Both the position numbers and the translations under genes were made by a program. The notes below the pieces were generated by a model that saw nothing but the letters and a program-made list of their open reading frames with translations, ran no database searches and was not told the origin of the DNA. A stretch of DNA of 26,441 nucleotides from a virus. Shown piece by piece: positions 323 to 26,162 of this stretch; position 1 is the stretch's first letter; the number at the start of each line of letters is the position of its first letter. The stretch lies in the IMG/VR virus record IMGVR_UViG_3300044614_002718, positions 1 to 26,441 of that record; one strand, given 5' to 3'.

Positions 323-399
323 TGGCACCCTCTGCAGGATTTGAACCTGCGACTTCTTCGTTCGTAGCGAAGCACTCTAGTCCACTGAGTTAAGAGGGT
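323..399 (-). tRNA. tRNA-Arg(ACG)
   Basis: Acceptor ACCCTCT pairs with AGAGGGT, then discriminator G and an encoded CCA. D-stem is ACTC/GAGT, anticodon stem CTTCG/CGAAG around loop CTACGAA, and T-arm GCAGG-TTCAAAT-CCTGC. All pairs are Watson-Crick. It is the last tRNA of the array in the direction of transcription. Confidence 0.95.
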
Positions 400-401
400 A
401 T

Positions 402-476
402 TGGCCAAGGGCCAGAGACTTGAACTCTGAATTGCGGTTTTGGAGACCGCCGTGTTACCAATTACACCAACCCAAG
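402..476 (-). tRNA. tRNA-Trp(CCA)
   Basis: The D-stem GTGT/ACAC, anticodon stem GCGGT/ACCGC with loop CTCCAAA, and T-arm CAGAG/CTCTG are perfect, and CCA is encoded. The acceptor is imperfect: CTTGGGT against GCCCTTG gives two adjacent T-T mismatches at pairs 2-71 and 3-70. Only 2 nt separate it from tRNA-Arg(ACG). Confidence 0.9.
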
Positions 477-497
477 AAATTTGGATATAAAATCCAA

Positions 498-576
498 TAC
501 CCCACCTCAGACTTGAACTGAGAATCCGAAGAAATAGATTTTGAGTCTACCGCGTTTACCATTTCGCCAGTGGGGC
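498..576 (-). tRNA. tRNA-Leu(CAA), class II
   Basis: Acceptor GCCCCAC pairs with GTGGGGT (last pair G-T). D-stem is GCG/CGC, anticodon stem GTAGA/TCTAT with loop CTCAAAA. A longer variable region (about 11 nt) precedes T-arm CTCAG-TTCAAGT-CTGAG; discriminator is A. CCA is not encoded. It is the only Leu tRNA here with a class II-like variable region. Confidence 0.88.
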
Positions 577-593
577 ATTTTACGATTCAAATA

Positions 594-601
594 TATAAAT
601 A
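594..601 (+). promoter_or_regulatory. Late promoter TATAAATA
   Basis: Perfect T4-type late element, 23 nt before the ATG of the plus-strand HNH gene at 625. The same spacing is seen before the HNH gene at 2901. Confidence 0.7.
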
Positions 602-624
602 GGTTTGAATCTATCGTGATAGTT

Positions 625-1025
625 ATGAAAAAATGTAACGAATGTAATTTACTACTCGATTTAAATATGTTTCCTTTAAAATAAAAGAAAAAGGAATTAA
701 ATCAAATAAATGTAAAACATGCACAAGAGATTATGGAAAATTACATTACAATAAAAATAAACAATTATATAAAGAAAGAGCAAAAAATAATAGAAAAAAA
801 GAAATACAAAAGACAAAGGATCTTATATCTGAATTAAAAATTAAATGTGCAGAATGCGGAGAAACTCATCCAGCAACCTTAGATTTTCATCATACTGATC
901 CAAATGAAAAAGAAAACAATATCGCAAGTATGAATTCCAGAAAACGTATTTTGGAGGAATCAAAAAAATGTATTGTTCTTTGTTCAAACTGTCATCGTAA
1001 ACTACATTGGAAACAACGTCAATAA
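625..1025 (+). pseudogene. HNH homing-type endonuclease, frameshifted
   Basis: Frame 0 from the ATG at 625 encodes 19 residues with a first zinc pair (CNEC) and stops at the TAA at 682. The -1 frame continues with KCKTC, then CAECG, the HNH core DFHHTDP, and CSNCHRKLHW, ending at 1023-1025. The joined product would be about 133 aa, normal for this small zinc-finger HNH type. The break falls at the heptamer T-TTA-AAA (675-681) directly before the stop. It could be a simple one-base deletion, a sequencing error, or a -1 frameshift site; I treat it as broken. The protein is related to the HNH gene at 2901 (CGE-HPATL-FHH-DP). It sits between two tRNA-Leu genes on the opposite strand, behind a late promoter. 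Confidence 0.75.
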
Positions 1026-1050
1026 AATAATTTGCAAAAATATTTGCAAA

Positions 1051-1125
1051 TACCCACGGTGAGATTCGAACTCACACTTGAGAGATTTTAAGTCTCTTGC
1101 CTGCTGCCGATTGGGCTACGTGGGC
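1051..1125 (-). tRNA. tRNA-Leu(UAA) with a short variable loop
   Basis: Acceptor GCCCACG/CGTGGGT, anticodon stem AGAGA/TCTCT with loop CTTAAAA, T-arm GTGAG-TTCGAAT-CTCAC, discriminator A, no encoded CCA. The variable region is only 5 nt (CAAGT), a class I form, although bacterial Leu tRNAs normally have a long arm. The D-stem has three pairs (GCC/GGC), as in Leu tRNAs. Confidence 0.88.
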
Positions 1126-1130
1126 ATAAG

Positions 1131-1412
1131 TTACGCTTTTATAAGATAGGTTTTACTACAGTTTCCTGCATCATATTTTCTAATTTGCTTTAGAAATCTA
1201 TCCTTTATGAGACGTTTTAAATCAGAATCAAATTTTACCTGACGTGTATATCTGCTATCAACAAGAAGTTGAAAATCTGGATTTTGGTCAAAGTAAGTTT
1301 TAATCAAATTTCTACGATCTTTACCCATAGGATAACGATATAGAACTTCTCTAAATTCATGTATTGATTCTTTAGGTAAAGATTCTAAAATTTGATTAAA
1401 GGTAATATTCAT
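1131..1412 (-). CDS. Hypothetical protein, 93 aa
   Basis: This 93-residue protein starts at the ATG at 1412 and ends 5 nt before the 5' end of tRNA-Leu(UAA). I do not recognise a family. It is charged and rich in Lys and Arg (for example DRRNLIKTYFDQ and KRLIKDRFLKQIRKY), with no signal peptide, membrane segment or cysteine motif. It is inside the tRNA array, on the same strand, between two Leu tRNAs, so it is probably co-transcribed with them. A nucleic-acid-related role would be only a guess from its basic charge. It is real enough by length, position and fit between tRNAs, but no function can be given. Confidence 0.6.
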   Translation of the reverse strand: MNITFNQILESLPKESIHEFREVLYRYPMGKDRRNLIKTYFDQNPDFQLLVDSRYTRQVKFDSDLKRLIKDRFLKQIRKYDAGNCSKTYLIKA

Positions 1413-1451
1413 AACTTAAAATATTTTGTTTGTTTGAAGATTTCTCTTCAA

Positions 1452-1524
1452 TGGGCGTGAGAAGATTCGAACTTCCACTTTATGGCTTCTAAGACCACTC
1501 TCTCTACCGTTGGAGTACACGCCC
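1452..1524 (-). tRNA. tRNA-Leu(UAG) with a short variable loop
   Basis: Acceptor GGGCGTG/CACGCCC, anticodon stem GTGGT/GCCAT with loop CTTAGAA, T-arm GGAAG-TTCGAAT-CTTCT, discriminator A, no CCA. The variable region AAAGT is 5 nt, again class I. Anticodon TAG reads CUA Leu codons under the standard code. Confidence 0.87.
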
Positions 1525-1570
1525 GAAAAAATTTCTAGAGATCTAGAAATTATAAAGAACTAAAATCCAA

Positions 1571-2050
1571 TCAATCGTGTTGATCAGAGTAATCCTGACA
1601 AGTAATACCCTCACGGGTCACAATGATTAGATTATCCTCACCCAAAGTAATACGCAGGACATCTTCCATTGCATCACTTTGAATGAATCTGCACAAATCT
1701 TTAACGAATTCAACATCAATACCGATATTCTTATTAGATTCTTTTTCTACATTCCAGGCACCAAAAGCCCAGACATTTTTATCATCACCATCATATTCAC
1801 CCCAAGATAGAGTACTAAATTCTTCAGAATTGGTGCAATTAGAAAAAGTGGGATCGTTTACAGAGAAAACACATGCATCACCATCATTAAAATATGGTGC
1901 ATACTGAGTCCAAACAATCACATTAATTGCTGGATTTTTATTCCAAAAATCAGAAAGAATTTCCTTTAGTTTCGCTTGAGCTTTCTTAGTGAATTCTTGG
2001 CGATACTGATTGTACTCTTCAATAAAGGCATCAATAAGTTTAGTTTGCAT
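1571..2050 (-). CDS. Conserved phage-type hypothetical protein, 159 aa
   Basis: I chose the ATG at 2050 (MQTKLIDAFIEEYN); the longer reading to 2119 would overlap the upstream gene's end in a way that gives an implausible N-terminus. The protein has a charged helical first part (about residues 1-40), then a mixed segment with VIVWTQYAPYFNDGDACVFSV and a Trp/Asp-rich middle (LSWGEYDGDDKNVWAFGAW). It resembles hypothetical proteins I associate with T4-like cyanophages, but no function is known to me. It follows the 2056-2418 gene by 5 nt, so the two are likely translated from one message. Confidence 0.7.
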   Translation of the reverse strand: MQTKLIDAFIEEYNQYRQEFTKKAQAKLKEILSDFWNKNPAINVIVWTQYAPYFNDGDACVFSVNDPTFSNCTNSEEFSTLSWGEYDGDDKNVWAFGAWNVEKESNKNIGIDVEFVKDLCRFIQSDAMEDVLRITLGEDNLIIVTREGITCQDYSDQHD

Positions 2051-2055
2051 AATAA

Positions 2056-2418
2056 TTAATCCGCGAGTGAAATGAATTTGGTTTCTTTTTTGTGAGATTT
2101 GCCCGTACCAGACATCCAAGGTTCGGCTGTCATGTTTTTAAGGTAATTCTCTGGAGTCGGAATGAATCCAAGATCTTGAATGATGTGATCTTCAGCGACA
2201 TCCCTAGGGGAGTAGGTAATTCCAGCAGAGTTAGTTCTAACTCTTCCGAACATTTGCTCAACCAGATAACACCCAAAAGAGGAGTGTAAAATGGCTCTGT
2301 GTCGAATATCGGGAAAGGCGATTTTACTGCTATCAATGAAATCATCAATATCAGCATAATCATCTGGAACACCACCATACTTCTTAGCATGAATTCTTCC
2401 GTGAAGAAAAGGTTTCAT
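2056..2418 (-). CDS. DUF6915-like protein, 120 aa
   Basis: The start is the ATG at 2418 (MKPFLHGRIHAKKYGG); an upstream in-frame ATG at 2469 would add an unlikely hydrophobic leader. The pattern HAKKYGG-x-DDY, IDDFIDSSK, DIRHRAILHSSFG and a C-terminal IIQDLGFIPTPENYL matches the DUF6915 family as I remember it: small proteins of unknown function in bacteria and phages, with a conserved RHRA-x-H-x-G stretch. The conserved His and Asp residues might bind metal, which is inference. It pairs with the downstream gene at 1571-2050 in a two-gene unit inside the tRNA array. Confidence 0.72.
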   Translation of the reverse strand: MKPFLHGRIHAKKYGGVPDDYADIDDFIDSSKIAFPDIRHRAILHSSFGCYLVEQMFGRVRTNSAGITYSPRDVAEDHIIQDLGFIPTPENYLKNMTAEPWMSGTGKSHKKETKFISLAD

Positions 2419-2498
2419 TTGATGAATTTCGAACAGAATCAATATAACAGGACTGCTCAAGAAAATCAAGCAGATTGTGCCAGTCTGAAAACTGGCAA

Positions 2499-2571
2499 TG
2501 TCCGTGAGAGGATTCGAACCTCCAACACCTACCCCCTCAAGGTAGTGCCTCTTCCGTTGGGCTACACGGAC
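2499..2571 (-). tRNA. tRNA-Leu(GAG) with a short variable loop
   Basis: Acceptor GTCCGTG/CACGGAC, anticodon stem CTACC/GGTAG with loop TTGAGGG, T-arm GGAGG-TTCGAAT-CCTCT, discriminator A. The variable region GTGTT is 5 nt, making this a third class I tRNA with a Leu anticodon. Confidence 0.87.
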
Positions 2572-2575
2572 ATAG

Positions 2576-2647
2576 TTCCAGAACTAGGATTCGAACCTAG
2601 ATAGACGCCTTCAAAGGGCGGAGTCCTGCCAGTTAGACGATTCTGGA
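2576..2647 (-). tRNA. tRNA-Gln(UUG)
   Basis: Acceptor TCCAGAA/TTCTGGA, D-stem GTCT/GGAC, anticodon stem CCGCC/GGCGT (outer pair mismatched) with loop CTTTGAA, T-arm CTAGG-TTCGAAT-CCTAG, discriminator A. It lies 4 nt upstream of tRNA-Leu(GAG). Confidence 0.93.
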
Positions 2648-2669
2648 GTGAATGTGGAATAATCCACAA

Positions 2670-2745
2670 AGTTCAGGGTGGGATTTGAACCCACGATAAA
2701 AGATGCTTTGCAGGCATCCGCATTCGACCACTCTGCCACCTGAAC
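2670..2745 (-). tRNA. tRNA-Cys(GCA)
   Basis: Acceptor GTTCAGG/CCTGAAC, anticodon stem GATGC/GCATC with loop CTGCAAA, T-arm GTGGG-TTCAAAT-CCCAC, discriminator T. Confidence 0.93.
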
Positions 2746-2777
2746 ATTTGAACTATCTGGTTAACCAGATAGTTGAG

Positions 2778-2851
2778 AGCCCAATGTCAGATTTGAACTG
2801 ACGACCTATTGTTTACTAGACAATTGCTCTAGACCACTGAGCTAATCGGGC
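2778..2851 (-). tRNA. tRNA-Thr(AGU)
   Basis: Acceptor GCCCGAT/ATTGGGC with one G-T pair, D-stem GCTC/GAGC, anticodon stem ATTGT/ACAAT with loop CTAGTAA, T-arm GTCAG-TTCAAAT-CTGAC, discriminator T. An A in the first anticodon position is unusual for a phage Thr tRNA. Confidence 0.88.
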
Positions 2852-2869
2852 GATTTTATGTTTGAAACT

Positions 2870-2877
2870 TATAAATA
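2870..2877 (+). promoter_or_regulatory. Late promoter TATAAATA
   Basis: Perfect late element ending 23 nt before the ATG of the HNH gene at 2901. Confidence 0.7.
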
Positions 2878-2900
2878 GTTTCACAAACATTTAAATTAAA

Positions 2901-3245
2901 ATGACACATTACCAATCATATGGAAAGACTTGGTATGAAAAAAATAAAGAATCCGAAAAATTGAAAACAAAACAAAGAAAAAATGAACTTAAAGAATGGT
3001 TTTTAGAATACAAATCAACACTAAAATGTGAAAAGTGTGGTGAAAACCATCCAGCAACTTTACAATTTCATCACTTAGACCCATCAGAAAAAGAAATAGG
3101 AATTTCTAAAGCATTAACAAATGGATGGTCTAAAAAAAGAATAATTTCAGAAATAGATAAGTGTCAAGTTTTGTGTGCAAATTGTCATTTTAAAACACAT
3201 TATGATTTGGAAATGGGGTGTAGGACGGGACTTGAACCCGCATAA
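2901..3245 (+). CDS. HNH homing-type endonuclease, 114 aa
   Basis: A small basic HNH protein. An N-terminal Lys-rich region (about 1-40) is followed by the first zinc pair (KCEKCG), the HNH core LQFHHLDP, and the second half VLCANCHFKTH. These motifs bind a metal ion and cut DNA. The last dozen residues (after THYDLEMG) and the stop are read from the antisense strand of tRNA-His: the ORF overlaps that tRNA by 32 nt. It is a paralogue of the frameshifted gene at 625. It has its own late promoter and runs against the tRNA array, as expected for a mobile insertion between tRNA-Thr(AGU) and tRNA-His. No partner protein is visible; I take it as free-standing. Confidence 0.85.
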   Translation: MTHYQSYGKTWYEKNKESEKLKTKQRKNELKEWFLEYKSTLKCEKCGENHPATLQFHHLDPSEKEIGISKALTNGWSKKRIISEIDKCQVLCANCHFKTHYDLEMGCRTGLEPA

Positions 3246-3290
3246 ACCAGATTCACAATCTGGCGCATTGACCAATTATGTTACCTACAC
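3214..3290 (-). tRNA. tRNA-His(GUG)
   Basis: Acceptor GTGTAGG/CCTACAC, discriminator C and encoded CCA. Anticodon stem CCAGA/TCTGG with loop TTGTGAA, T-arm GCGGG-TTCAAGT-CCCGT. Discriminator C73 fits His; the base before position 1 is T, so the extra G-1 is not encoded in the DNA. The 3' end is antisense to the end of the HNH gene at 2901-3245. Confidence 0.93.
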
Positions 3291-3291
3291 A

Positions 3292-3363
3292 AGGCAGTGG
3301 GTAGAATTGAACTACCGACATAGAGGGTATGAATCTCTTGTTCTACCACTGAACTACACTGCC
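3292..3363 (-). tRNA. tRNA-Met/Ile2 (CAU)
   Basis: Acceptor GGCAGTG/CACTGCC, D-stem GTTC/GAAC, anticodon stem AGAGA/CCTCT (inner pair mismatched) with loop TTCATAC, T-arm GGTAG-TTCAATT-CTACC. A normal G1-C72 pair argues against an initiator. Whether it is elongator Met or a modified Ile tRNA cannot be told. One nt separates it from tRNA-His. Confidence 0.88.
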
Positions 3364-3366
3364 AAA

Positions 3367-3451
3367 CGGAGAGTAGAGGATTCGAACCTCTGGTGCTGTT
3401 ACACACAAGACCTTTCCAAGATCTCACCATAAACCACTCGGACAACTCTCC
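3367..3451 (-). tRNA. tRNA-Ser(GGA)
   Basis: Class II tRNA. Acceptor GGAGAGT/ACTCTCC, anticodon stem AGATC/GGTCT with loop TTGGAAA, long variable arm, T-arm AGAGG-TTCGAAT-CCTCT, discriminator G. Confidence 0.93.
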
Positions 3452-3455
3452 AAGG

Positions 3456-3538
3456 CGGAAGATGCTGGACTCGAACCAGCGGAGGTTTTACCCTCACGGT
3501 TTAGCAAACCGCTGCATTAACCACTCTGCCAATCTTCC
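3456..3538 (-). tRNA. tRNA-Ser(GCU)
   Basis: Class II tRNA. Acceptor GGAAGAT/ATCTTCC, anticodon stem GCGGT/ACCGT with loop TTGCTAA, variable arm GAGG-GTAAAA-CCTC, T-arm GCTGG-TTCGAGT-CCAGC, discriminator G. Confidence 0.93.
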
Positions 3539-3541
3539 ATT

Positions 3542-3617
3542 TGGTAGTCCCAACGGGATTCGAACCCGTGTTTCAACCTTGAGAGGGTTGCGACCTAAAC
3601 CGCTAGTCGATGAGACT
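3542..3617 (-). tRNA. tRNA-Glu(CUC)
   Basis: Acceptor AGTCTCA/TGGGACT, discriminator A and encoded CCA. D-stem GACT/GGTC, anticodon stem CAACC/GGTTG with loop CTCTCAA, T-arm ACGGG-TTCGAAT-CCCGT. It resembles tRNA-Glu(UUC) at 4167-4239 in the anticodon and T arms, suggesting duplication and divergence. Confidence 0.92.
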
Positions 3618-3623
3618 TTAAAG

Positions 3624-3678
3624 CGTCGTATGTGGCGAATCGAACCTCATTTTGAGGATTATGTCGTCACATACGACG
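3624..3678 (-). repeat. tRNA-like hairpin, perfect 11-bp inverted repeat
   Basis: CGTCGTATGTG (3624-3634) is repeated inverted as CACATACGACG (3668-3678). The 33-nt interior holds a second 5-bp hairpin CCTCA/TGAGG. On the tRNA strand the interior contains a T-loop signature GGTTCGATTC followed by the outer stem, so it looks like a tRNA that lost its D and anticodon arms. It sits between tRNA-Glu(CUC) and tRNA-Ile, 6 nt and 2 nt from them. It has no 3' T run, so it is not a typical terminator. Confidence 0.6.
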
Positions 3679-3680
3679 GA

Positions 3681-3752
3681 TTGGAATGGTGAGATTTGAA
3701 CTCACGACTTCTGCGTTATCAGCACAGCACTCTACCACTGAGTTACATTCCA
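3681..3752 (-). tRNA. tRNA-Ile(GAU)
   Basis: Acceptor TGGAATG/CATTCCA, D-stem ACTC/GAGT, anticodon stem CTGTG/CGCAG with loop CTGATAA, T-arm GTGAG-TTCAAAT-CTCAC, discriminator A. Confidence 0.93.
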
Positions 3753-3919
3753 TTAATGAGTTGCTGACTCTTCCCTTTACCTCTCCCCTATTCGCATCCC
3801 CAAGAGACGGGGCAGGGGTGATTCCGATTTTTCACCGTAGATATCATAAGAGTTATGCAGGATAGCGACTCCTACCTCCGTAATCTATCGCGTGTTTTTC
3901 ATATTGGGCAGCAACCCAA
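3753..3919 (-). other. Structured spacer between tRNA-Phe and tRNA-Ile
   Basis: No tRNA or convincing ORF. Several inverted repeats are present: CCCC/GGGG around AAGAGAC near 3798-3812, GGTGA/TCACC near 3817-3836, and ATTGGG/CCCAAT at 3903-3920, which borders tRNA-Phe. It may be transcribed as part of the tRNA precursor; a stable small RNA is possible but not shown. Confidence 0.4.
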
Positions 3920-3993
3920 TGGGAACACCCGGAATTGAACCGAGACCTCATGTTCTTCAGACATACGTGCCGACCAACCTACACCATGTTCCC
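3920..3993 (-). tRNA. tRNA-Phe(GAA)
   Basis: Acceptor GGGAACA/TGTTCCC, anticodon stem TATGT/ACATG with loop CTGAAGA, T-loop TTCAATT, discriminator A. Confidence 0.92.
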
Positions 3994-4071
3994 ACACGTT
4001 ACAGTCTATACGTTATAGACCTTTAACCGACGTAAGTAAAATCGGTTGGAGTTTTACTAGTATTCTCCAAG
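3994..4071 (-). other. Spacer with three hairpins
   Basis: GTCTATA/TATAGAC (4004-4020, 3-nt loop), AACCGA/TCGGTT (4025-4047) and TTGGAG/CTCCAA (4046-4070) follow one another between tRNA-Pro and tRNA-Phe. No coding signal. They may guide processing of the tRNA precursor. Confidence 0.45.
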
Positions 4072-4144
4072 TCTGAGAGGTTGGATTTGAACCAACGTCC
4101 TCACCCTTCCAAGGGGTGCCGTCTGACCTCTGACATACTCCCAG
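4072..4144 (-). tRNA. tRNA-Pro(UGG)
   Basis: Acceptor CTGGGAG/CTCTCAG with one G-T pair, anticodon stem CACCC/GGGTG with loop CTTGGAA, T-arm GTTGG-TTCAAAT-CCAAC, discriminator A. Confidence 0.92.
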
Positions 4145-4166
4145 ATAAGATCCTCATAAAGAGGAA

Positions 4167-4239
4167 TAGTCCCAGCGGGGTTTGAACCCGCGTTTCAACC
4201 TTGAAAGGGTCGCGTCCTGACCAATTAGACGATGGGACC
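4167..4239 (-). tRNA. tRNA-Glu(UUC)
   Basis: Acceptor GGTCCCA/TGGGACT (first pair G-T), D-stem GTCT/GGAC, anticodon stem CGACC/GGTTG with loop CTTTCAA, T-arm GCGGG-TTCAAAC-CCCGC, discriminator A. Confidence 0.92.
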
Positions 4240-4415
4240 TTGATAGGAGGGGTATCTCGCAAGTGAGATAGTATTCACCAGTAAGTTATAGACCTATCTC
4301 CGTCAACTTACGGTTAGGGCAAGAATCCCTCCTCAATTCCAGTTCTTGCTACAACATTTCTCTACACACTGGCAAACTCTAAGAAATGCGTGAGAGTTAG
4401 AATACTGACTCTCAA
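4240..4415 (-). other. Hairpin-rich spacer in the tRNA array
   Basis: No tRNA fold or credible ORF. It carries nested or serial inverted repeats: TATCTC/GAGATA (4253-4270), GTAAGTT/AACTTAC (4281-4311), GCAAGAA/TTCTTGC (4319-4349) and AACTCT/AGAGTT (4375-4398). The density is well above what I see in the coding parts. Candidate structured RNA or tRNA processing signals. Confidence 0.4.
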
Positions 4416-4487
4416 TTGCTCCGGCTGGACTCGAACCAGCGACCTACCCCCACGATGGGGCCACTCTACCAACTGAGCTACAGAGCG
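4416..4487 (-). tRNA. tRNA-Thr(CGU), irregular
   Basis: Acceptor pairs GCTCTG/CGGAGC are good, but position 1 gives a C-A mismatch with 72. Anticodon stem GCCCC/GGGGT encloses only 6 nt (ATCGTG), so CGU is read by counting from U33. T-arm GCTGG-TTCGAGT-CCAGC is perfect and discriminator is A. The anticodon assignment is therefore tentative. Confidence 0.7.
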
Positions 4488-4540
4488 GTTCAGTTTATCA
4501 ATACTGCCCTTACAGAAAACTGAAAAAACTGCAGGGACGA

Positions 4541-4613
4541 CCGCCCATAGGGGATTTGAACCCCTGATACCTCTTAGACAGAGAGGCGTGCTAGACCACT
4601 ACACTAATGAGCG
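4541..4613 (-). tRNA. tRNA-Asp(GUC)
   Basis: Acceptor CGCTCAT/ATGGGCG with one T-G pair, anticodon stem CCTCT/AGAGG with loop CTGTCTA, T-arm AGGGG-TTCAAAT-CCCCT, discriminator G as expected for Asp. Its 5' base abuts the CCA of tRNA-Gly(GCC) with no spacer. Confidence 0.93.
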
Positions 4614-4688
4614 TGGAGCGAAATATCGGATTTGAACCGATGACATCAACCTTGGCAAGGTTGCGTTCTACCACTGAACTAATTTCGC
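4614..4688 (-). tRNA. tRNA-Gly(GCC)
   Basis: Acceptor GCGAAAT/ATTTCGC, discriminator T and encoded CCA, D-stem GTTC/GAAC, anticodon stem CAACC/GGTTG with loop TTGCCAA, T-arm ATCGG-TTCAAAT-CCGAT. The CCA ends exactly where tRNA-Asp begins. Confidence 0.94.
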
Positions 4689-4691
4689 AAG

Positions 4692-4801
4692 AGGGTATGG
4701 ATAGGATTTGAATCTACGATGCCTTAGGCGACTGCTGTACACACAGTCCATCATACCACTATGATAGGATCCTATCATAGACTTTTCGATGAGACATACC
4801 C
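4692..4801 (-). tRNA. tRNA-Tyr-like (GUA) with a palindrome in the D-loop
   Basis: Acceptor GGGTATG/CATACCC (7 bp) encloses about 96 nt. The anticodon stem ACTGT/GCAGT has loop GTGTACA, and a variable arm GCC-TAA-GGC follows, as in class II Tyr tRNAs. The T-arm is weak (GTAGA against CCTAT). The D region has a TCAT/ATGA stem but its loop contains a perfect 22-bp palindrome at 4759-4780. Without it the length would be 88 nt, normal for Tyr. A second, better Tyr tRNA lies at 4919-5009, so this may be a decayed copy. Confidence 0.6.
4759..4780. repeat. Perfect 22-bp palindrome inside a tRNA
   Basis: Each arm is CTATGATAG, and the centre is GATC. As RNA it would form a 9-bp stem with a GATC tetraloop. 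It lies in the D-loop of the tRNA-Tyr-like sequence at 4692-4801. Confidence 0.9.
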
Positions 4802-4821
4802 ATAAGTTTCCCCGAAGGGAA

Positions 4822-4895
4822 TGGACTCGAAGAGAATCGAACTCTTCACAGTTTGCTTGCAAAGCAATCTCGCCAGCCTTGGTACATGCGAGCCC
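4822..4895 (-). tRNA. tRNA-Ala(UGC), unusual D-arm
   Basis: Acceptor GGGCTCG/CGAGTCC, anticodon stem TTGC/GCAA with loop TTTGCAA, T-arm AAGAG-TTCGATT-CTCTT, discriminator A. The D region (CATGTACCAAGGCTGG) does not form a standard D-stem; CTCGC/GCGAG or CCA/TGG can pair instead. Isotype is clear but function is less certain. Confidence 0.75.
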
Positions 4896-4918
4896 ATTGT
4901 TACCTCTAAAAGAGGCAG

Positions 4919-5009
4919 TGAGAGAGGAGGGAATCGAACCCCCGATGGTTCTTATGTAACGCTTTTACAGAGCGCCTCTACACATATTCGCAACAGTAGC
5001 CACTCTCCC
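4919..5009 (-). tRNA. tRNA-Tyr(GUA)
   Basis: Class II tRNA. Acceptor GGGAGAG/CTCTCTC, D-stem GCTAC/GTAG with a loop lacking the usual GG, anticodon stem GCGCT/AGCGT with loop CTGTAAA, long variable region, T-arm GGGGG-TTCGATT-CCCTC, discriminator A. Confidence 0.85.
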
Positions 5010-5113
5010 AAATTTAAATTTAGACGTAATAGGCGGGTTGAACACATGCTACCCATATAATTGCCTACGTTCCCTCAAGAGTTATTCACTCTCGTTAGTT
5101 CCATACGCCTAAA
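5010..5113 (-). other. Spacer with a tRNA-sized hairpin
   Basis: ACGTA...TACGT (5024-5028, 5066-5070) encloses AGGC/GCCT and GGGT/ACCC around an interior containing TTCAACC. A second hairpin AGAGT/ACTCT is at 5078-5092. No ORF. It may be another degraded tRNA-like element; this is weaker than the one at 3624-3678. Confidence 0.4.
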
Positions 5114-5185
5114 TGGGTCTGGTGGGACTCGAACCCACAACTTCCAGGTTAAAAGCCCGTTACTCTACCATTGAGTTACAGACCC
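5114..5185 (-). tRNA. tRNA-Lys(UUU)
   Basis: Acceptor GGGTCTG/CAGACCC, D-stem ACTC/GAGT, anticodon stem CGGG/CCTG with loop CTTTTAA, T-arm GTGGG-TTCGAGT-CCCAC, discriminator A. Confidence 0.93.
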
Positions 5186-5226
5186 ATTAAAAGGTTTAAA
5201 TTTTCGAGGTTCAAAAGTGATGTGTT

Positions 5227-5243
5227 TCAACCACCTTTATAGA
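5227..5243 (-). repeat. 17-nt repeat, copy 1
   Basis: On the minus strand it reads TCTATAAAGGTGGTTGA. An identical copy is at 6661-6677. The TATAAA core suggests a promoter or start element in front of tRNA-Lys and the following array, but I see no good -35 box here. Confidence 0.6.
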
Positions 5244-5304
5244 ATACCACCTTCAGATCTTTGAGGAGTGAATGGTGGACACTTAGGAAACTGTCACAAG
5301 CAAT

Positions 5305-5337
5305 AAAAAAGGGGAGAAACCTTTTTGGTCTCTCCCC
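5305..5337 (-). terminator. Strong intrinsic terminator inside the tRNA array
   Basis: On the minus strand an 11-bp stem (GGGGAGAGACC with GGTTTCTCCCC, one G-T pair) and loop AAAAA are followed by six T. It would stop transcripts coming from tRNA-Gly(UCC) and upstream, so the main array from tRNA-Lys on needs another start or antitermination. Confidence 0.85.
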
Positions 5338-5362
5338 TGTCTTGCCCTTGTTAGAATCTATA

Positions 5363-5446
5363 CTATAGATCCCAATCCGCAAACAGGGGAGTTCCCGCGA
5401 TATGCCAATAGCGGCAATCGAGGAGACTAAACTGTTTTTCTGGCAT
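5363..5446 (-). CDS. Possible 27-aa peptide
   Basis: A short ORF from the ATG at 5446 to a TAG encodes MPEKQFSLLDCRYWHIAG and nine further residues ending in FADWDL. It is the only reasonable ORF in the 5186-5511 gap. A late promoter (TATAAATA) lies 33 nt upstream, and the strong terminator at 5305-5337 follows 25 nt after the stop, so promoter, ORF and terminator form a neat unit. No clear ribosome binding site is visible, and I know no homologue. It could equally be chance or a structured RNA, since CCGC/GCGG repeats lie within it. Confidence 0.3.
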   Translation of the reverse strand: MPEKQFSLLDCRYWHIAGTPLFADWDL

Positions 5447-5479
5447 GGGGTAAGACATTGTTTTCGACCTAAGTGTTAT

Positions 5480-5487
5480 TATTTATA
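5480..5487 (-). promoter_or_regulatory. Late promoter TATAAATA
   Basis: Perfect minus-strand late element, 33 nt before the 27-aa ORF and downstream of tRNA-Gly(UCC). Confidence 0.6.
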
Positions 5488-5511
5488 AGACTTTTATTTC
5501 TAAAAGTCAAG

Positions 5512-5583
5512 AGCGGGGTATCGGAATCGAACCGACGACATCTAACTTGGAAGGATAGCGTTCTACCGCTGAACTAACCCCGC
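5512..5583 (-). tRNA. tRNA-Gly(UCC)
   Basis: Acceptor GCGGGGT/ACCCCGC, D-stem GTTC/GAAC, anticodon stem CTATC/GTTAG (one T-T mismatch) with loop CTTCCAA, T-arm GTCGG-TTCGATT-CCGAT, discriminator T. Confidence 0.92.
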
Positions 5584-5591
5584 ATAAGACA

Positions 5592-5620
5592 ATCATACAT
5601 TATATATATGAGTTTGTCAA
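5592..5620 (-). promoter_or_regulatory. sigma70 promoter before tRNA-Gly(UCC)
   Basis: TTGACA (5620-5615), a 17-nt spacer and TATGAT (5597-5592). The predicted start is within a few bases of the tRNA 5' end at 5583. Confidence 0.75.
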
Positions 5621-5621
5621 G

Positions 5622-5663
5622 CGCCTCAGGCAGGATTCGAACCTGCGACAAACCGCTTATGAG
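5622..5663 (-). pseudogene. 3' half of a tRNA-Met/Ile2 (CAU)
   Basis: From the anticodon loop onward the sequence is a normal tRNA: CTCATAA, 3' stem strand GCGGT, variable TTGTC, T-arm GCAGG-TTCGAAT-CCTGC, acceptor 3' strand CTGAGGC, discriminator G. The 5' half (acceptor GCCTCAG, D-arm, 5' anticodon strand) is absent. In its place are a consensus promoter and the end of the HNH gene 5679-6242. Confidence 0.85.
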
Positions 5664-5666
5664 AAT

Positions 5667-5695
5667 ATTATAAAACATTTAAGTTAAATTGTCAA
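5667..5695 (-). promoter_or_regulatory. Consensus sigma70 promoter overlapping the HNH gene end
   Basis: TTGACA (5695-5690), 17-nt spacer, TATAAT (5672-5667): a full consensus match. The -35 box lies in the last codons of the HNH gene, and the start site would fall at the anticodon loop of the truncated tRNA. Confidence 0.8.
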
Positions 5696-6242
5696 ATGTT
5701 TGTTTTCTTATTTCAAAATGTATCTCCCTATGACAATTTGCGCAAACACAAATACATTTATCTAATTCTCTTTTTTGGTCTTCCCATTTTCTAATTTTCA
5801 TATTGCCGAAATTTTTATCTTTTTGTGTTGGATCTATATGATGAAATTCCAGAGCATCAATACATTTATCATATCCACACCTTTCACATTTTCCACCCTT
5901 ATATTCAACTGCTTTTATTTTATTATTTCTCCATCTTTGTCCTGTTTTTTTATTAGAACATTTTTTACACTGGGATGCCCACAATTTTTTTCTTTTTCTC
6001 CAATATCCAGTATCTTCAGTTAAAAGAACTCCACAACAAGAACAGTTTTGTATTGGATTTCCATTAACTCTTTCTACAGGGTTAAGTGTATATGGGTTTT
6101 CCGAAAAAGGTTTAAAATTTGTATTTAAGTTAAATTTTTTTAACCAATACCTAACTGTTGTTTTTGATTTATTTTCTATATCAGATATTTGAGATGTTGA
6201 TAATCCAGTTTCAATATATTTTTTTAATTTATCTTTATCCAT
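5679..6242 (-). CDS. HNH homing-type endonuclease with N-terminal HTH, 187 aa
   Basis: Residues 1-40 (KKYIETGLSTSQISDIE, TTVRYWLKKFNL) look like a helix-turn-helix DNA-binding domain. Residues about 66-95 hold zinc pairs (CSCCG, CKKCS). The HNH nuclease follows: CERCGYD, LEFHHIDP, and CVCANCHREIH near the C-terminus. This order, a specificity domain before HNH, is usual for homing enzymes. Its 3' end abuts the 3' half of a tRNA-Met, whose 5' half is missing. A late promoter (CATAAATA) lies 21 nt upstream of the ATG, flanked by the inverted repeat ATAGTTCAG/CTGAACTAT (6241-6249, 6275-6283). Unlike the other two HNH genes in the array it runs in the direction of the tRNAs. Very AT-rich. Confidence 0.88.
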   Translation of the reverse strand: MDKDKLKKYIETGLSTSQISDIENKSKTTVRYWLKKFNLNTNFKPFSENPYTLNPVERVNGNPIQNCSCCGVLLTEDTGYWRKRKKLWASQCKKCSNKKTGQRWRNNKIKAVEYKGGKCERCGYDKCIDALEFHHIDPTQKDKNFGNMKIRKWEDQKRELDKCICVCANCHREIHFEIRKQTFDNLT

Positions 6243-6263
6243 AGTTCAGAGGTTTAATATTAC

Positions 6264-6271
6264 TATTTATG
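6264..6271 (-). promoter_or_regulatory. Late promoter CATAAATA
   Basis: NATAAATA element 21 nt upstream of the HNH gene 5679-6242, inside the loop of a 9-bp inverted repeat (6241-6249, 6275-6283). Confidence 0.6.
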
Positions 6272-6288
6272 CAACTGAACTATTATAA

Positions 6289-6360
6289 CAGGCATACCTG
6301 GATTCGAACCAGGAATAAGGGTTTAGAAGACCCGTGTGATATCCCTTTCACCATACGCCC
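6289..6360 (-). tRNA. tRNA-Arg(UCU)
   Basis: Acceptor GGGCGTA/TATGCCT with two G-T pairs, D-stem GTGA/TCAC, anticodon stem CGGGT/ACCCT with loop CTTCTAA, T-arm CCTGG-TTCGAAT-CCAGG, discriminator G. First tRNA of the array. Confidence 0.92.
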
Positions 6361-9620: not shown

Positions 9621-10358
9621 ATGACTTCACAAAGTCCTAGAATTTATTTGTATAAGATTACTTTTGAAGAAGTTCCATATTACTATTATGGAGTTCATAA
9701 GGAAAAGAAATTTAATGAACAATACTGGGGTTCTCCAGTGGCACACAAATGGTGTTGGGAACTTTATACTCCAAAGAAACAAATATTGGAGATATTTGAA
9801 TTTAGTGATAATGGATGGAAAGAAGCATTAAAAGTTGAAGAAAGATTGATAAGACCAGTATTTAACACAGATAAATGGTGTCTTAATGAAAATTGTGGTG
9901 GAAAAATATCATTAGAATCCAGTAGAAAAGCAGGAAGATATGTATATGAATCTAAAATAGGTTGTTTTAAATTAACAAAGAAAGAAAGATTGGAAGTAGC
10001 AAAAAAAGTTGGACACTCAAGTTATATTAATAAAACAGGTGTATTTTCATTAGATCCTGAAACTAGAAGTGTTTTAGGAAAAATTAATGGAGAAGCATTG
10101 ATGGAGAAAGGTTTAGGTATATTTTCTATGACACCTGAAGAAAAACATTTATTGGGAGTAAGAAATGGAGAAAGAAATAAAAAATTAAAACTAGGTATTT
10201 GCGGACTTCCAACAGAAGAAAGAAGTAAAAGGTGTAAAGAAATTAATTCTCAAAAATGGAAATGCACCATAACTGGATACATTTCAAATGCTGGAGGATT
10301 ATCCAGATATCAAAATAAAAAAGGAATAGATACTTCTAATAGAATTAGAATAAAATAA
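9621..10358 (+). CDS. GIY-YIG-type homing endonuclease with NUMOD repeats, 245 aa
   Basis: The N-terminal domain (about 1-95) has YLYKITFEEVPYYYYGVHK and NEQYWGSPVAHKW, a divergent GIY-YIG signature, with VEERLIRP supplying a Glu. Residues about 105-210 contain four tandem NUMOD3-like units: GCFKLTKKER, GVFSLDPETRSVLGKINGE, GIFSMTPEEKHLLGVRNGE and GICGLPTEERSKRC. Such repeats bind DNA in homing enzymes. The C-terminus is short and basic. It is free-standing on the plus strand after another GIY-YIG gene, between the acidic 115-aa gene and the 446-aa gene. It has its own late promoter. The catalytic core is only loosely conserved, so activity is uncertain. Confidence 0.8.
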   Translation: MTSQSPRIYLYKITFEEVPYYYYGVHKEKKFNEQYWGSPVAHKWCWELYTPKKQILEIFEFSDNGWKEALKVEERLIRPVFNTDKWCLNENCGGKISLESSRKAGRYVYESKIGCFKLTKKERLEVAKKVGHSSYINKTGVFSLDPETRSVLGKINGEALMEKGLGIFSMTPEEKHLLGVRNGERNKKLKLGICGLPTEERSKRCKEINSQKWKCTITGYISNAGGLSRYQNKKGIDTSNRIRIK

Positions 10359-23139: not shown

Positions 23140-23553
23140 TTACAAATCACCTTGCTTACGATTCTCTGAGTAATATACATCAAAAGTACCTTCAGGATAA
23201 CGAGCACTTAGTTTCTCATAATTCATGTCAAGAATCTCATCAATATTAGTATCAAGTGCCATACATGCCTGAGCGACATACCACATAATATCTCCAAGTT
23301 CTCTCTTCATATGAAAGACATTTTCCTCATTATAAGGTTTACCTTGAAGAATAATTTTCTTAACCACTTCGGTAAATTCGCCCGCTTCTGCACTCATACC
23401 CAGAGCAGCAGTAAGTAGACGAGGAACATCAGCATTATCACCCACCTCAAGTTCAGTCATACGAGAAAGAAGTTGAGCAATGTCACTACTTGCTGGACTC
23501 GTCGTTTGACGAACAAATTCAATATACTTATTAGAATCAATTTTTTGTTCCAT
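23140..23553 (-). CDS. mazG: MazG-type nucleotide pyrophosphohydrolase, 137 aa
   Basis: Hydrolyses nucleoside triphosphates to monophosphates and pyrophosphate. The metal-binding acidic residues are visible: Glu56, Glu59 and Glu62 in SAEAGEFTEVV, and Glu85 and Asp88 in RELGDIMWYV. This is the single-domain length common in T4-like cyanophages, where MazG is a frequent host-like gene thought to adjust nucleotide pools. Its ATG overlaps the end of the helicase C-part at 23553, so it is translated with it, and a terminator follows. Context is nucleotide supply and replication. Confidence 0.92.
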   Translation of the reverse strand: MEQKIDSNKYIEFVRQTTSPASSDIAQLLSRMTELEVGDNADVPRLLTAALGMSAEAGEFTEVVKKIILQGKPYNEENVFHMKRELGDIMWYVAQACMALDTNIDEILDMNYEKLSARYPEGTFDVYYSENRKQGDL

Positions 23554-23984
23554 TAGAATTTAAATCCTCCGAATTTTTCTTTTAGTGATGGTTTTGGACT
23601 TTCCTCATAATCATACTCCCCTTCTCTTCCAGAGTCAAGTATGTCCTTCTGAGCATTCTGCTCAACGTCATAAAGTCTCATTTTTGCTCGATCAATGCCG
23701 ATTACAAATCTCTTATAAACGGTTGGGTCATTATAACGATTTTTCAATTGCTTCACCATAATCTGACCAAGTTCCTCAAGTTCTTCAGTAGAAATAAGTG
23801 CAAACATTAGGTCTGCAGTTGCGGGAAGACCAAAGGATTCAGATGTATCAGTTAATTCAACATCGCTACTACTATTATGTGTGAGAATATCATTCGCATA
23901 GAACAAATGATTTCCAGACACTTCAATATCTACAAGTTCTCTTTCATCAAGTTCTTCAATTTTTAGAATTTTTTTCAGTATCAT
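23553..23984 (-). CDS. 41: C-terminal split intein fused to gp41 helicase C-terminal part
   Basis: Residues 1-37 are the C-terminal half of a split intein: MILKKILKIEELDEREL through GNHLFYANDILTHN, with the final His36-Asn37 and a Ser at +1. It is nearly identical to the C part of the known gp41-1 split intein. Residues 38-143 (SSSDVELTDTSESFGLPATA, LMFALIS, VKQLKNRYNDPT, RFVIGIDRAKMRLYDVE) are the C-terminal part of a DnaB-like helicase. Protein splicing in trans with the product of 24834-26162 would yield about 460 aa, close to T4 gp41. The start ATG lies 35 nt after the GIY-YIG gene. TATAAATC and CATAAATT upstream are imperfect late elements. Confidence 0.95.
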   Translation of the reverse strand: MILKKILKIEELDERELVDIEVSGNHLFYANDILTHNSSSDVELTDTSESFGLPATADLMFALISTEELEELGQIMVKQLKNRYNDPTVYKRFVIGIDRAKMRLYDVEQNAQKDILDSGREGEYDYEESPKPSLKEKFGGFKF

Positions 23985-24019
23985 TTAATTTAAAATTTAT
24001 GAGTGATTTATAATTTCAG

Positions 24020-24784
24020 TCAGTTCTTCATCCTCCCATTAATATATCCACAAGAAATAAAACTTTGATAGTCCCAAACATCAGCACACATACAGTTCAC
24101 CCCATTATTCATCCAAATAACACCTTTTCCATTTTCCCACCCAGAATTTAAATATTCATTTAGATTTCCTTTTTTGATAAATTTTCTTTCTTTTAAATCT
24201 TTGTTATGTATCCAAGTTCTACCAACAGAAGATTTAGCAATATTATTTTTATGTTCCTCTGTAAGTTTTTGACCTCTTTTACTTTCTGCTATTTTATCTT
24301 TTGTTTCTTGAGTATGATTTGTATTAAATTTAGTATATAAACCAAGAGAATATCTATGCTTTTTAGTTTTTTTCATTTTCTCTTTTGATTGTGTAGAAAA
24401 ACTTATTCCATAGTTCCACGCCCTACCATTTCTAATGTTCTCTTCTATTTGTTCTTGATTTGCTCCATGATAGTGTTTTTCATAATTACAAGTTTCATAT
24501 TTCATATTATATCCACATCCATCCCTATAATGAGATTTATATTTACGAATATAATAATCTTCTTTTATTCTTGCTTCATTTTCATCAACTTCTTCTATCA
24601 CTTCAATAGTAAAGTTTCTCTTACCATATTCAATAATAGCATCAGACAGAAGTTTATTTCCTTGGTGCCTTCCAAGAGCGATATGTTCTTGTAATCTTCT
24701 ATCCAATTCATTTTTAGTCAAACCAACATAATACATATGTGGATTAACTGCTGTGTTGGTAATTAGATAAATCTTTACTCTCAT
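24020..24784 (-). CDS. GIY-YIG homing endonuclease between the split intein halves, 254 aa
   Basis: Residues 1-95 are the nuclease: KIYLITNTAVNPHMYYVGLTKNELDRRLQEH holds the GIY-YIG pair in the form IYL/YYVG, the catalytic Arg29 region, and a later Glu in ARIKEDYYIRKY. Residues about 150-195 contain NUMOD3-like units (KFNTNHTQETKDKIAESKRG, LTEEHKNNIAKSSVG). Two repeats of a C-terminal DNA-binding motif follow (IHNKDLKERKF...YLNSGWENG and IWMNNGVN...FISCGYING). It is free-standing with its own late promoter at 24806-24813 and does not share a frame with the intein parts. It presumably cuts uninterrupted gene 41 to spread the cassette. Confidence 0.92.
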   Translation of the reverse strand: MRVKIYLITNTAVNPHMYYVGLTKNELDRRLQEHIALGRHQGNKLLSDAIIEYGKRNFTIEVIEEVDENEARIKEDYYIRKYKSHYRDGCGYNMKYETCNYEKHYHGANQEQIEENIRNGRAWNYGISFSTQSKEKMKKTKKHRYSLGLYTKFNTNHTQETKDKIAESKRGQKLTEEHKNNIAKSSVGRTWIHNKDLKERKFIKKGNLNEYLNSGWENGKGVIWMNNGVNCMCADVWDYQSFISCGYINGRMKN

Positions 24785-24805
24785 ATCAGTAAGTTATACT
24801 ACTAT

Positions 24806-24813
24806 TATTTATA
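24806..24813 (-). promoter_or_regulatory. Late promoter TATAAATA
   Basis: Perfect late element 21 nt before the GIY-YIG gene, in the short gap after the helicase N-part. Confidence 0.75.
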
Positions 24814-24833
24814 AGAAGTAAAACTTACACATA

Positions 24834-26162
24834 CTATTCCTTTATATAAAGACACATACCTTCTTTCAACCCCCCTTTGATATTCACCTCACCATTTTGA
24901 GTTGGGAACAAGTGTTCTTCACTACAAATAATTTCTTTACCATCTTCCAAAGTAATCTTATAAGATTTCTTTTTAGATTTTGGAAAGACATTTAGAACTT
25001 GATTATAACCAGTATTTGAAAGCACCAAATCCCCAACTTTAATATTTGAAAGTTCTTTCATACCTTGTGGCGTTTGAACTTGTGTTTTCAAATCTAGGCA
25101 ATACCCCGAACGAGTAGTTTGTGTTGCACTTACAATAGGAACGTTAAATTCTACTGCAAGTCCACGAAGTTCTTCTGCAATCGCTTTGATATATGAATAA
25201 GAATTAATATTACTATTGGTCTTATATCTTGAAGAGGCACAGATATTTAAATAATCAATGAAAATGATATCTGGTTTAAATGATTTTTTGAGTGAGAGTT
25301 CATTCAATAATCCTTTAAAGTGTCCCGAATGTGCAGAAGCAGTAGGATACTCTTTAATGATTAAAGTTCCTTGTGTTTTCTTTGCAATGCTGTTTACCTT
25401 TGTTTCAAAAACAGACTTGGGAAGTTCTACAATGTCTTTAATATTTACATTTAGGAGATTTGAGTCAATTCGTTCAGCAATTTTCTCTTCTGCCATTTCA
25501 AGCGTAATGTACAGAACGTTCCGTCCTTGGAGCAAGACGGAGCTAGCCACATGGCACATGAATAAAGATTTCCCGACACCAGTACCAGCAAGTGCGATAT
25601 TGAGAGTTTTGTTAGGGAGACCACCTTTCGTAATAAGGTTAAAGTATTCAAGATCAAATTCAATTTTATCCTCCGATTTATGATAAGACTCATATCTTTC
25701 TTCATAATCAAGTAAGTAATCGTGACCTACATGGTTATCAAATGAAACTGCAAGAGCATCCTGTAGAATAGATGGAATTGCATCCCTATTTTTATTGCCA
25801 GTTCCATCAGCAAGTTGAATAGATTCCATTAAGGCCAAATAAATGGCGCGATCACGACACCATTTTTCTGTAGTGTTTACTAACCAGTTTTTTTCAACTG
25901 CAATATCTTCAAGATGACTGACTAAATGAGTTAACTTTTTAAATTGTTCCTCATTTACATCTGATCTCTTTTCAATTTCAATGCAGAGAATTTCTTTTGT
26001 AGGAATATCATTGTACTCTAGAACAAATTTAGAGATTTCTTCAAATACAATTCTCTGTTCAGAATCTTCAAAATATTCTTCTTTAATAAAAGGTAAAACT
26101 TTTCTTAGATATTCTTCATTGTGAATAAGATTGCGTAAAACTAAAAATTCTATTTTTTCCAT
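24834..26162 (-). CDS. 41: gp41 replicative helicase N-terminal part fused to N-terminal split intein
   Basis: Residues 1-354 are a DnaB/gp41-type helicase that unwinds DNA at the fork and works with the primase gp61. Walker A is AGTGVGKS (192-199), Walker B lies in DIIFIDYLNI, and the last helicase motif is SATQTTRSGY. At Cys355 an intein begins: CLDLKTQVQTPQGMKEL, VGDLVLSNTGYN and EEHLFPTQNGEV, ending in GMCLYIKE. It is 88 residues, the size and nearly the sequence of the N part of the gp41-1 split intein. The reading frame then stops. Trans-splicing with 23553-23984 would restore the helicase. The ATG overlaps the upstream stop as TAATG. Confidence 0.96.
   Translation of the reverse strand: MEKIEFLVLRNLIHNEEYLRKVLPFIKEEYFEDSEQRIVFEEISKFVLEYNDIPTKEILCIEIEKRSDVNEEQFKKLTHLVSHLEDIAVEKNWLVNTTEKWCRDRAIYLALMESIQLADGTGNKNRDAIPSILQDALAVSFDNHVGHDYLLDYEERYESYHKSEDKIEFDLEYFNLITKGGLPNKTLNIALAGTGVGKSLFMCHVASSVLLQGRNVLYITLEMAEEKIAERIDSNLLNVNIKDIVELPKSVFETKVNSIAKKTQGTLIIKEYPTASAHSGHFKGLLNELSLKKSFKPDIIFIDYLNICASSRYKTNSNINSYSYIKAIAEELRGLAVEFNVPIVSATQTTRSGYCLDLKTQVQTPQGMKELSNIKVGDLVLSNTGYNQVLNVFPKSKKKSYKITLEDGKEIICSEEHLFPTQNGEVNIKGGLKEGMCLYIKE

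What the first reader, a model, noticed from the sequence alone, without database searches (positions are those of the whole stretch)
23553..26162. Gene 41 fractured by a gp41-1-type split intein with a GIY-YIG gene between the halves
The helicase stops 88 residues after Cys355 of the N half and resumes in a separate ORF beginning with a 37-residue C-intein ending HN-S. Both intein parts nearly match the fast gp41-1 split intein, first known from metagenomic reads, but with substitutions. Here the full phage context is visible: a free-standing GIY-YIG endonuclease with its own TATAAATA late promoter fills the gap. Essential replication helicase would depend on trans-splicing, while the homing enzyme is expressed late and separately.
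Basis: partly seen in the sequence, partly recalled or inferred. Interest (0 to 1): 0.85.

Follow-up and report, generated by a model that had tools for sequence, protein, structure and literature searches.

The report
Cyanophage helicase gene split by intein
A virus of cyanobacteria carries its essential DNA-unwinding enzyme as two separate genes whose products should stitch themselves together, with a DNA-cutting "homing" gene parked between them; this is a clean, now well-populated example of an arrangement already described from metagenomes, not a new kind of system.

Summary
Gene 41 (T4-type replicative helicase) is broken after residue 354. The N half ends in an 88-residue N-intein, the C half begins with a 37-residue C-intein, and a 254-aa GIY-YIG-type gene lies between. 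The intein is gp41-1 (PDB 6QAZ/6RIZ) with substitutions. It is not an assembly break: 47 other viral contigs carry it, 38 of them with the same GIY gene beginning at nearly the same place. The nearest helicase relative (L002) is uninterrupted and shows the precise empty site (insert 1,227 bp). Carriers are scattered almost at random on the helicase tree while the insert stays about 91-97% alike, so it moves as a unit, and it brings Ser in place of Gly at +1. The 52-nt leader of the GIY gene is nearly invariant and has the I-TevI layout: a late promoter inside a hairpin ending 4 nt before the start codon. The kind is known (fractured genes; Dassa 2009, recalled from memory, not held here). New here, as far as I could check: population-scale mobility, the regulatory leader, repeated loss of the endonuclease, changing cargo genes, and relatives whose helicase is broken twice. 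Splicing and cutting remain untested.

The parts
25101..26162 (-). N-terminal part of gene 41 helicase (N-extein, residues 1-354, ends ...TTRSGY)
   Evidence: 91% identical to uninterrupted L002
24837..25100 (-). N-intein, 88 aa, gp41-1 type, starting Cys1
24785..24836 (-). 52-nt leader from the TAG stop (24834-24836) to the GIY start; near invariant in the GIY-bearing loci
24817..24828 (-). 5' arm of the inverted repeat (GTAAGTTTTACT; one mismatch in this window)
24806..24813 (-). TATAAATA, T4-type late promoter -10 motif, inside the hairpin loop
24789..24800 (-). 3' arm of the inverted repeat (AGTATAACTTAC), ends 4 nt before the ATG
24785..24795 (-). AACTTACTGAT, identical to the consensus of uninterrupted gene 41 at +17 to +27 after the insertion site; possible operator-like copy of the homing site
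   Evidence: 8 of 5000 shuffles as good; suggestive only
24020..24784 (-). GIY-YIG-type homing endonuclease gene, 254 aa
23874..23984 (-). C-intein, 37 aa, ends ...ILTHN
23553..23873 (-). C-terminal part of gene 41 helicase (C-extein, 106 aa, begins SSSDVELTD) and stop

Best explanation
A mobile element made of a gp41-1-type split intein and a GIY-YIG homing endonuclease has inserted into gene 41 of a T4-like cyanophage. Both helicase halves are made from the replication-gene transcript; the intein halves find each other, splice in trans (Cys1, Asn at the C-intein end, Ser+1) and give a 460-residue helicase joined at TRSGY-SSSD. On transcripts that read through from upstream, the endonuclease start lies at the foot of a hairpin and is poorly used; a late promoter inside the hairpin makes a short transcript without the 5' arm, so the endonuclease is made late. 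In mixed infection it would cut an uninterrupted gene 41, and repair would copy the whole 1,227-bp insert plus a few flanking bases, including the Gly-to-Ser change at +1 needed for splicing. Shown by sequence: parts, empty site, unit mobility, selection on all three genes, conserved leader. Inferred: splicing, cutting, timing.
For: Intein identity and invariant Cys1, block-B His, His-Asn and Ser+1 in all loci where they can be read. Purifying selection: pN/pS 0.17 N-intein, 0.14 C-intein, 0.24 GIY. Exact empty site in L002; the 80 closest other gene 41 copies are uninterrupted at that codon. Carriers need at least 24 label changes on the helicase tree, near the shuffled mean of 28, while the insert is 0.91-0.97 identical against 0.69-0.76 for flanking extein DNA. 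All 36 close GIY relatives found sit in this gap. +1 is Ser (AGT/AGC) in all readable carriers, Gly in most non-carriers. Leader 0.971 identical, with the late motif in every GIY-bearing locus. Read-through versus late-transcript accessibility of the start is 0.39 versus 0.60 in the window. Precedent for hairpin plus late promoter in I-TevI, segB and mobE: PMC2988022.
Against: No expression or enzymatic data. The hairpin has little covariation (one compensatory pair), one mismatch in this window, and a fold hardly better than shuffles here (z -1.0), though z is -3.3 in L086. No Shine-Dalgarno is visible, unlike I-TevI. The GIY assignment rests on PHROG profiles and motif residues; Pfam GIY-YIG and PDB profile searches gave nothing and the fold prediction failed (pLDDT 40). 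Accessibility in read-through RNA is within the range of other window genes (mean 0.47).
Confidence: 0.85

Rival explanations
1. The GIY-YIG gene is an independent free-standing homing gene that merely settled in the gap of an already split intein and homes on another site; the intein itself is immobile or moved by ordinary recombination.
For: GIY is absent in two kinds of loci that keep the split intein: L082-085/L125/L127 and L109. Free-standing T4 endonucleases often cut away from their own insertion site (PMC2988022).
Against: The GIY family was found nowhere else in the scanned viral contigs, at a nearly fixed distance from the N-intein; both GIY-less types show deletion scars (leader remnant; fused GIY tail), so they are losses; insert and GIY travel together over a scrambled helicase tree.
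Confidence: 0.12
2. The two helicase pieces work as a non-covalent two-subunit enzyme without splicing, as the Aeh1 NrdA pieces do.
For: Genes in pieces that work without splicing exist in T4-like phages (PMC3653736, PMC10448857).
Against: Complete, conserved splicing residues and strong constraint on both intein halves; near identity to gp41-1, one of the fastest known split inteins (PMC7090010); the break lies inside the RecA-like ATPase core.
Confidence: 0.03
3. Gene 41 is a dead gene in this phage, or the break is an assembly fault.
For: None found; the window is one 26 kb metagenomic contig.
Against: 47 further contigs from 41 data sets carry the same split intein in gene 41; ORFs intact and pN/pS low.
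Confidence: 0.02

Closest known systems
Fractured genes with split inteins (Dassa et al. 2009, NAR 37:2560; from memory, not held here) and the gp41-1 split intein (PDB 6QAZ, 6RIZ)
   Same: Same host gene, same insertion junction (native junction SSS, PMC7090010), same split point, free-standing endonuclease gene between halves, phage origin
   Different: About 8% intein substitutions; here empty sites, mobility, leader structure, endonuclease losses and cargo genes are shown across about 36 distinct carriers
T4 I-TevI, segB and Aeh1 mobE regulation (PMC2988022)
   Same: Late promoter placed inside an RNA hairpin before the endonuclease start; possible operator resembling the homing site
   Different: Sits in a split-intein gap, not an intron or intergenic space; no clear Shine-Dalgarno; covariation weak; repression untested
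Split PolB intein with HNH endonuclease in Pseudomonas phage MIJ3 (PMC6892783)
   Same: Isolated phage with an endonuclease ORF between two split-intein halves
   Different: Different host gene, intein and endonuclease family
Shigella phage ESh36 gene 41 (ON528746; L129)
   Same: Gene 41 broken by a split intein with an ORF between the halves, in an isolated T4-like phage
   Different: Insertion about a dozen codons further on (DIAE|S), N-intein 46% identical, different intervening ORF

Membership tests
gp41-1 split intein | N- and C-intein sequence match and split point | tested here: met
   match to 6QAZ/6RIZ over both parts, split at the same residue (88/37)
gp41-1 split intein | Cys1, block-B His, C-terminal His-Asn, Ser+1 | tested here: met
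   all readable loci
gp41-1 split intein | Trans-splicing activity | not testable with these tools
   needs expression of the two halves
Fractured gene (split intein with free-standing endonuclease gene between halves) | Two ORFs, each with half an intein, and a separate endonuclease ORF between | tested here: met
Fractured gene (split intein with free-standing endonuclease gene between halves) | Uninterrupted relatives with the exact empty site | tested here: met
GIY-YIG homing endonuclease | Profile match | tested here: met
   PHROG 314 (5e-22) and 5123 (4e-11); Pfam and PDB profiles silent
GIY-YIG homing endonuclease | Catalytic Tyr, Tyr, Arg, His, Glu | tested here: met
   KIY 4-6, YVG/YIG 19-21, R29, H34, E75 conserved in 14 members (assignment to I-TevI positions by eye, from memory)
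GIY-YIG homing endonuclease | Cuts the uninterrupted allele | not testable with these tools
   needs a cleavage assay
I-TevI-type late expression | Late promoter inside a hairpin that masks the start in read-through RNA | tested here: inconclusive
   motif and hairpin conserved; covariation weak; accessibility change modest
I-TevI-type late expression | Operator resembling the homing site | tested here: inconclusive
   11-nt identity at +17 to +27 of the empty site, 8/5000 shuffles as good
Group I intron | Catalytic intron RNA in the gap | tested here: not met
   only tRNAs in the window reach Rfam thresholds

The most novel reading that the evidence does not exclude
Split intein, endonuclease and leader form one integrated, temporally controlled and possibly self-repressing mobile element that sweeps through cyanophage gene 41, installs its own +1 Ser, gathers cargo genes (DNA methylase, virion-type late genes) in the gap, and in some phages meets a second split intein so that one essential helicase is assembled from three polypeptides by two trans-splicing reactions.
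Probability: 0.45. Interest if true: 0.6.

Novelty: new member of a known kind. Interest (0 to 1): 0.42.

Why it matters
gp41-1 is among the most used split inteins in biotechnology, yet its natural setting has been known mainly from metagenomic reads. Dozens of natural variants, exact empty sites, repeated endonuclease losses and a contiguous-to-split series at a second site make the question of how split inteins arise and spread directly testable, and supply natural sequence variants.

Tried and rejected
Assembly fault: rejected (47 contigs). Group I intron joining the ORFs: none. Structure of the GIY protein: prediction failed (pLDDT 40), so no fold search was run. PDB profile search of GIY: none. 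Covariation support for the hairpin: too little variation; a first pair count was set in the wrong register and repeated. Co-conversion from codon diversity: only short and uneven signals (Arg CGT at -4, Gly GGG at -2, AGT at +1), so the claim is kept to the +1 codon and a few bases. In one search one count in the shuffle test was miscoded; one search replaces it. The key 2009 paper is not in the library, nor the 2012 gp41-1 kinetics paper.

Full report
Observation. On the minus strand gene 41 is in two ORFs, 24834-26162 and 23553-23984, with a third ORF, 24020-24784, between them. The first ORF is helicase residues 1-354 followed by an 88-residue N-intein that begins with Cys355; the second is a 37-residue C-intein ending HN followed by SSSD and, in all, 106 helicase residues. 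The helicase parts match consecutive stretches of PHROG 19. The intein parts match the gp41-1 crystal structures.

Not an artefact. A scan of IMG/VR with the N-intein gave 47 contigs, from 41 data sets by contig name. Of these, 38 carry the GIY gene after the N-intein, at +53 nt in 36 and at +56 or +60 in two; 7 lack it (L082-085, L125, L127, L109); two end too early to tell. Three more loci came from the GIY search. The 80 closest gene 41 copies in a separate scan are uninterrupted at this codon. L002, the nearest relative of the window helicase, aligns to window 25110-26162 and 23158-23864 with only 18 nt between, a precise empty site; the insert is 23874-25100, 1,227 bp.

Constraint. Among dereplicated carriers pN/pS is 0.17 (N-intein), 0.14 (C-intein), 0.24 (GIY); Cys1, the block-B His, His-Asn and Ser+1 are invariant where readable. 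Non-carriers mostly have Gly at +1 (TRSGY|GSSD), so the insertion appears to bring its own Ser.

Mobility. On a tree of flanking helicase DNA with the five codons next to the site left out, the carrier label needs 24 changes, 11 of them forced by starred branches; shuffled labels average 28. The window's sister is the empty L002. Yet mean pairwise identity is 0.911 for the N-intein, 0.971 for the leader, 0.941 for the start of GIY and 0.932 for the C-intein, against 0.688 and 0.761 for flanking exteins (the upstream figure includes a few loci misaligned by a second insertion). Close relatives of the GIY protein were found only in this gap. This is what homing of the whole unit would give.

Leader. 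The 52 nt from the N-intein stop to the GIY start read TAGTATGTGTAAGTTATACTTCTTATAAATAATAGTAGTATAACTTACTGAT in the commonest forms, with few variants. A 12-bp inverted repeat flanks TATAAATA and ends 4 nt before ATG. T4 I-TevI, segB and Aeh1 mobE have this layout, in which early read-through RNA masks the start and the late transcript does not (PMC2988022). Predicted start-site accessibility rises from 0.39 to 0.60 in the window and similarly in most relatives, not in L123. Covariation is weak. The last 11 nt, AACTTACTGAT, equal the consensus of uninterrupted gene 41 at +17 to +27; 8 of 5,000 dinucleotide shuffles do as well, and no other 120-nt stretch of gene 41 that was compared shares 10 or more nt with the leader. 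By analogy with I-TevI autorepression this could be an operator; it is a lead, not a result.

Losses and cargo. In L082-type loci the first 22 leader bases run into the end of an ORF seen downstream of GIY in other loci (L091), and in L109 the N-intein runs into what looks like the GIY tail: the endonuclease was lost at least twice while the split stayed. L121 has a frame-broken GIY. After GIY the gap holds nothing (window, L120, L123), a DNA methylase (L108, L110, L118; PF01555), late virion-type ORFs, some with their own TATAAATA (L087, L160), or ORFs of unknown function (L091, L102).

Context. Longer carriers hold psbA, so their hosts are cyanobacteria; the window itself has class Ia ribonucleotide reductase, primase, MazG, a 2OG oxygenase and 24 tRNAs. 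In the phage isolate collection the gp41-1 intein was not found: all N-intein matches are below 60% identity.

Verdict. Ordinary in kind, being the published fractured-gene arrangement and essentially the gp41-1 locus itself, but unusually well documented here. The statement about the 2009 paper rests on memory of its abstract (26 loci, free-standing endonuclease between split-intein halves, some with control elements brought in with the endonuclease gene); it could not be read. So the leader's control elements may already be described there.

Noticed in passing
L094:1216-2339, also L095, L116, L118, L123: A second intein at the Walker A loop of the same helicase (CVHPETKV...SSHN|TGVGKS) is split after about 16-20 residues in these loci, so together with the gp41-1 break the helicase is in three pieces. 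L094 has an antisense HNH-like ORF in that gap (HNH by eye; Pfam silent).
   Followed up: partly
L082:1424-1849 and L116:4075-4517: The same Walker A intein is contiguous in L082, and in L116 split by nothing more than an overlapping stop-start (TAATG), giving a natural series from whole to minimally split to split-with-insert.
   Followed up: partly
L113:2287-2970: A further split intein about a dozen codons downstream of the gp41-1 site (DTSE|CIF...KN|SFGLP), so two split inteins lie almost next to each other; the same site is used in Shigella phage ESh36.
   Followed up: partly
L108, L110, L118 gap; L087, L086, L160 gap: DNA methylase or late virion-type genes sit between the endonuclease and the C-intein half, as if the gap were a landing place for cargo.
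   Followed up: partly
L172:1929-2432 (record G003): psbA of this carrier cyanophage appears in two pieces with two group I intron matches nearby.
   Followed up: no
window 326-6360: 24 tRNA genes, all on the minus strand, with an HNH endonuclease gene at 5679-6242 among them.
   Followed up: no
window 9621-10358 (+): A second homing endonuclease ORF (PHROG 314, E 5e-7), on the strand opposite to most neighbours.
   Followed up: no
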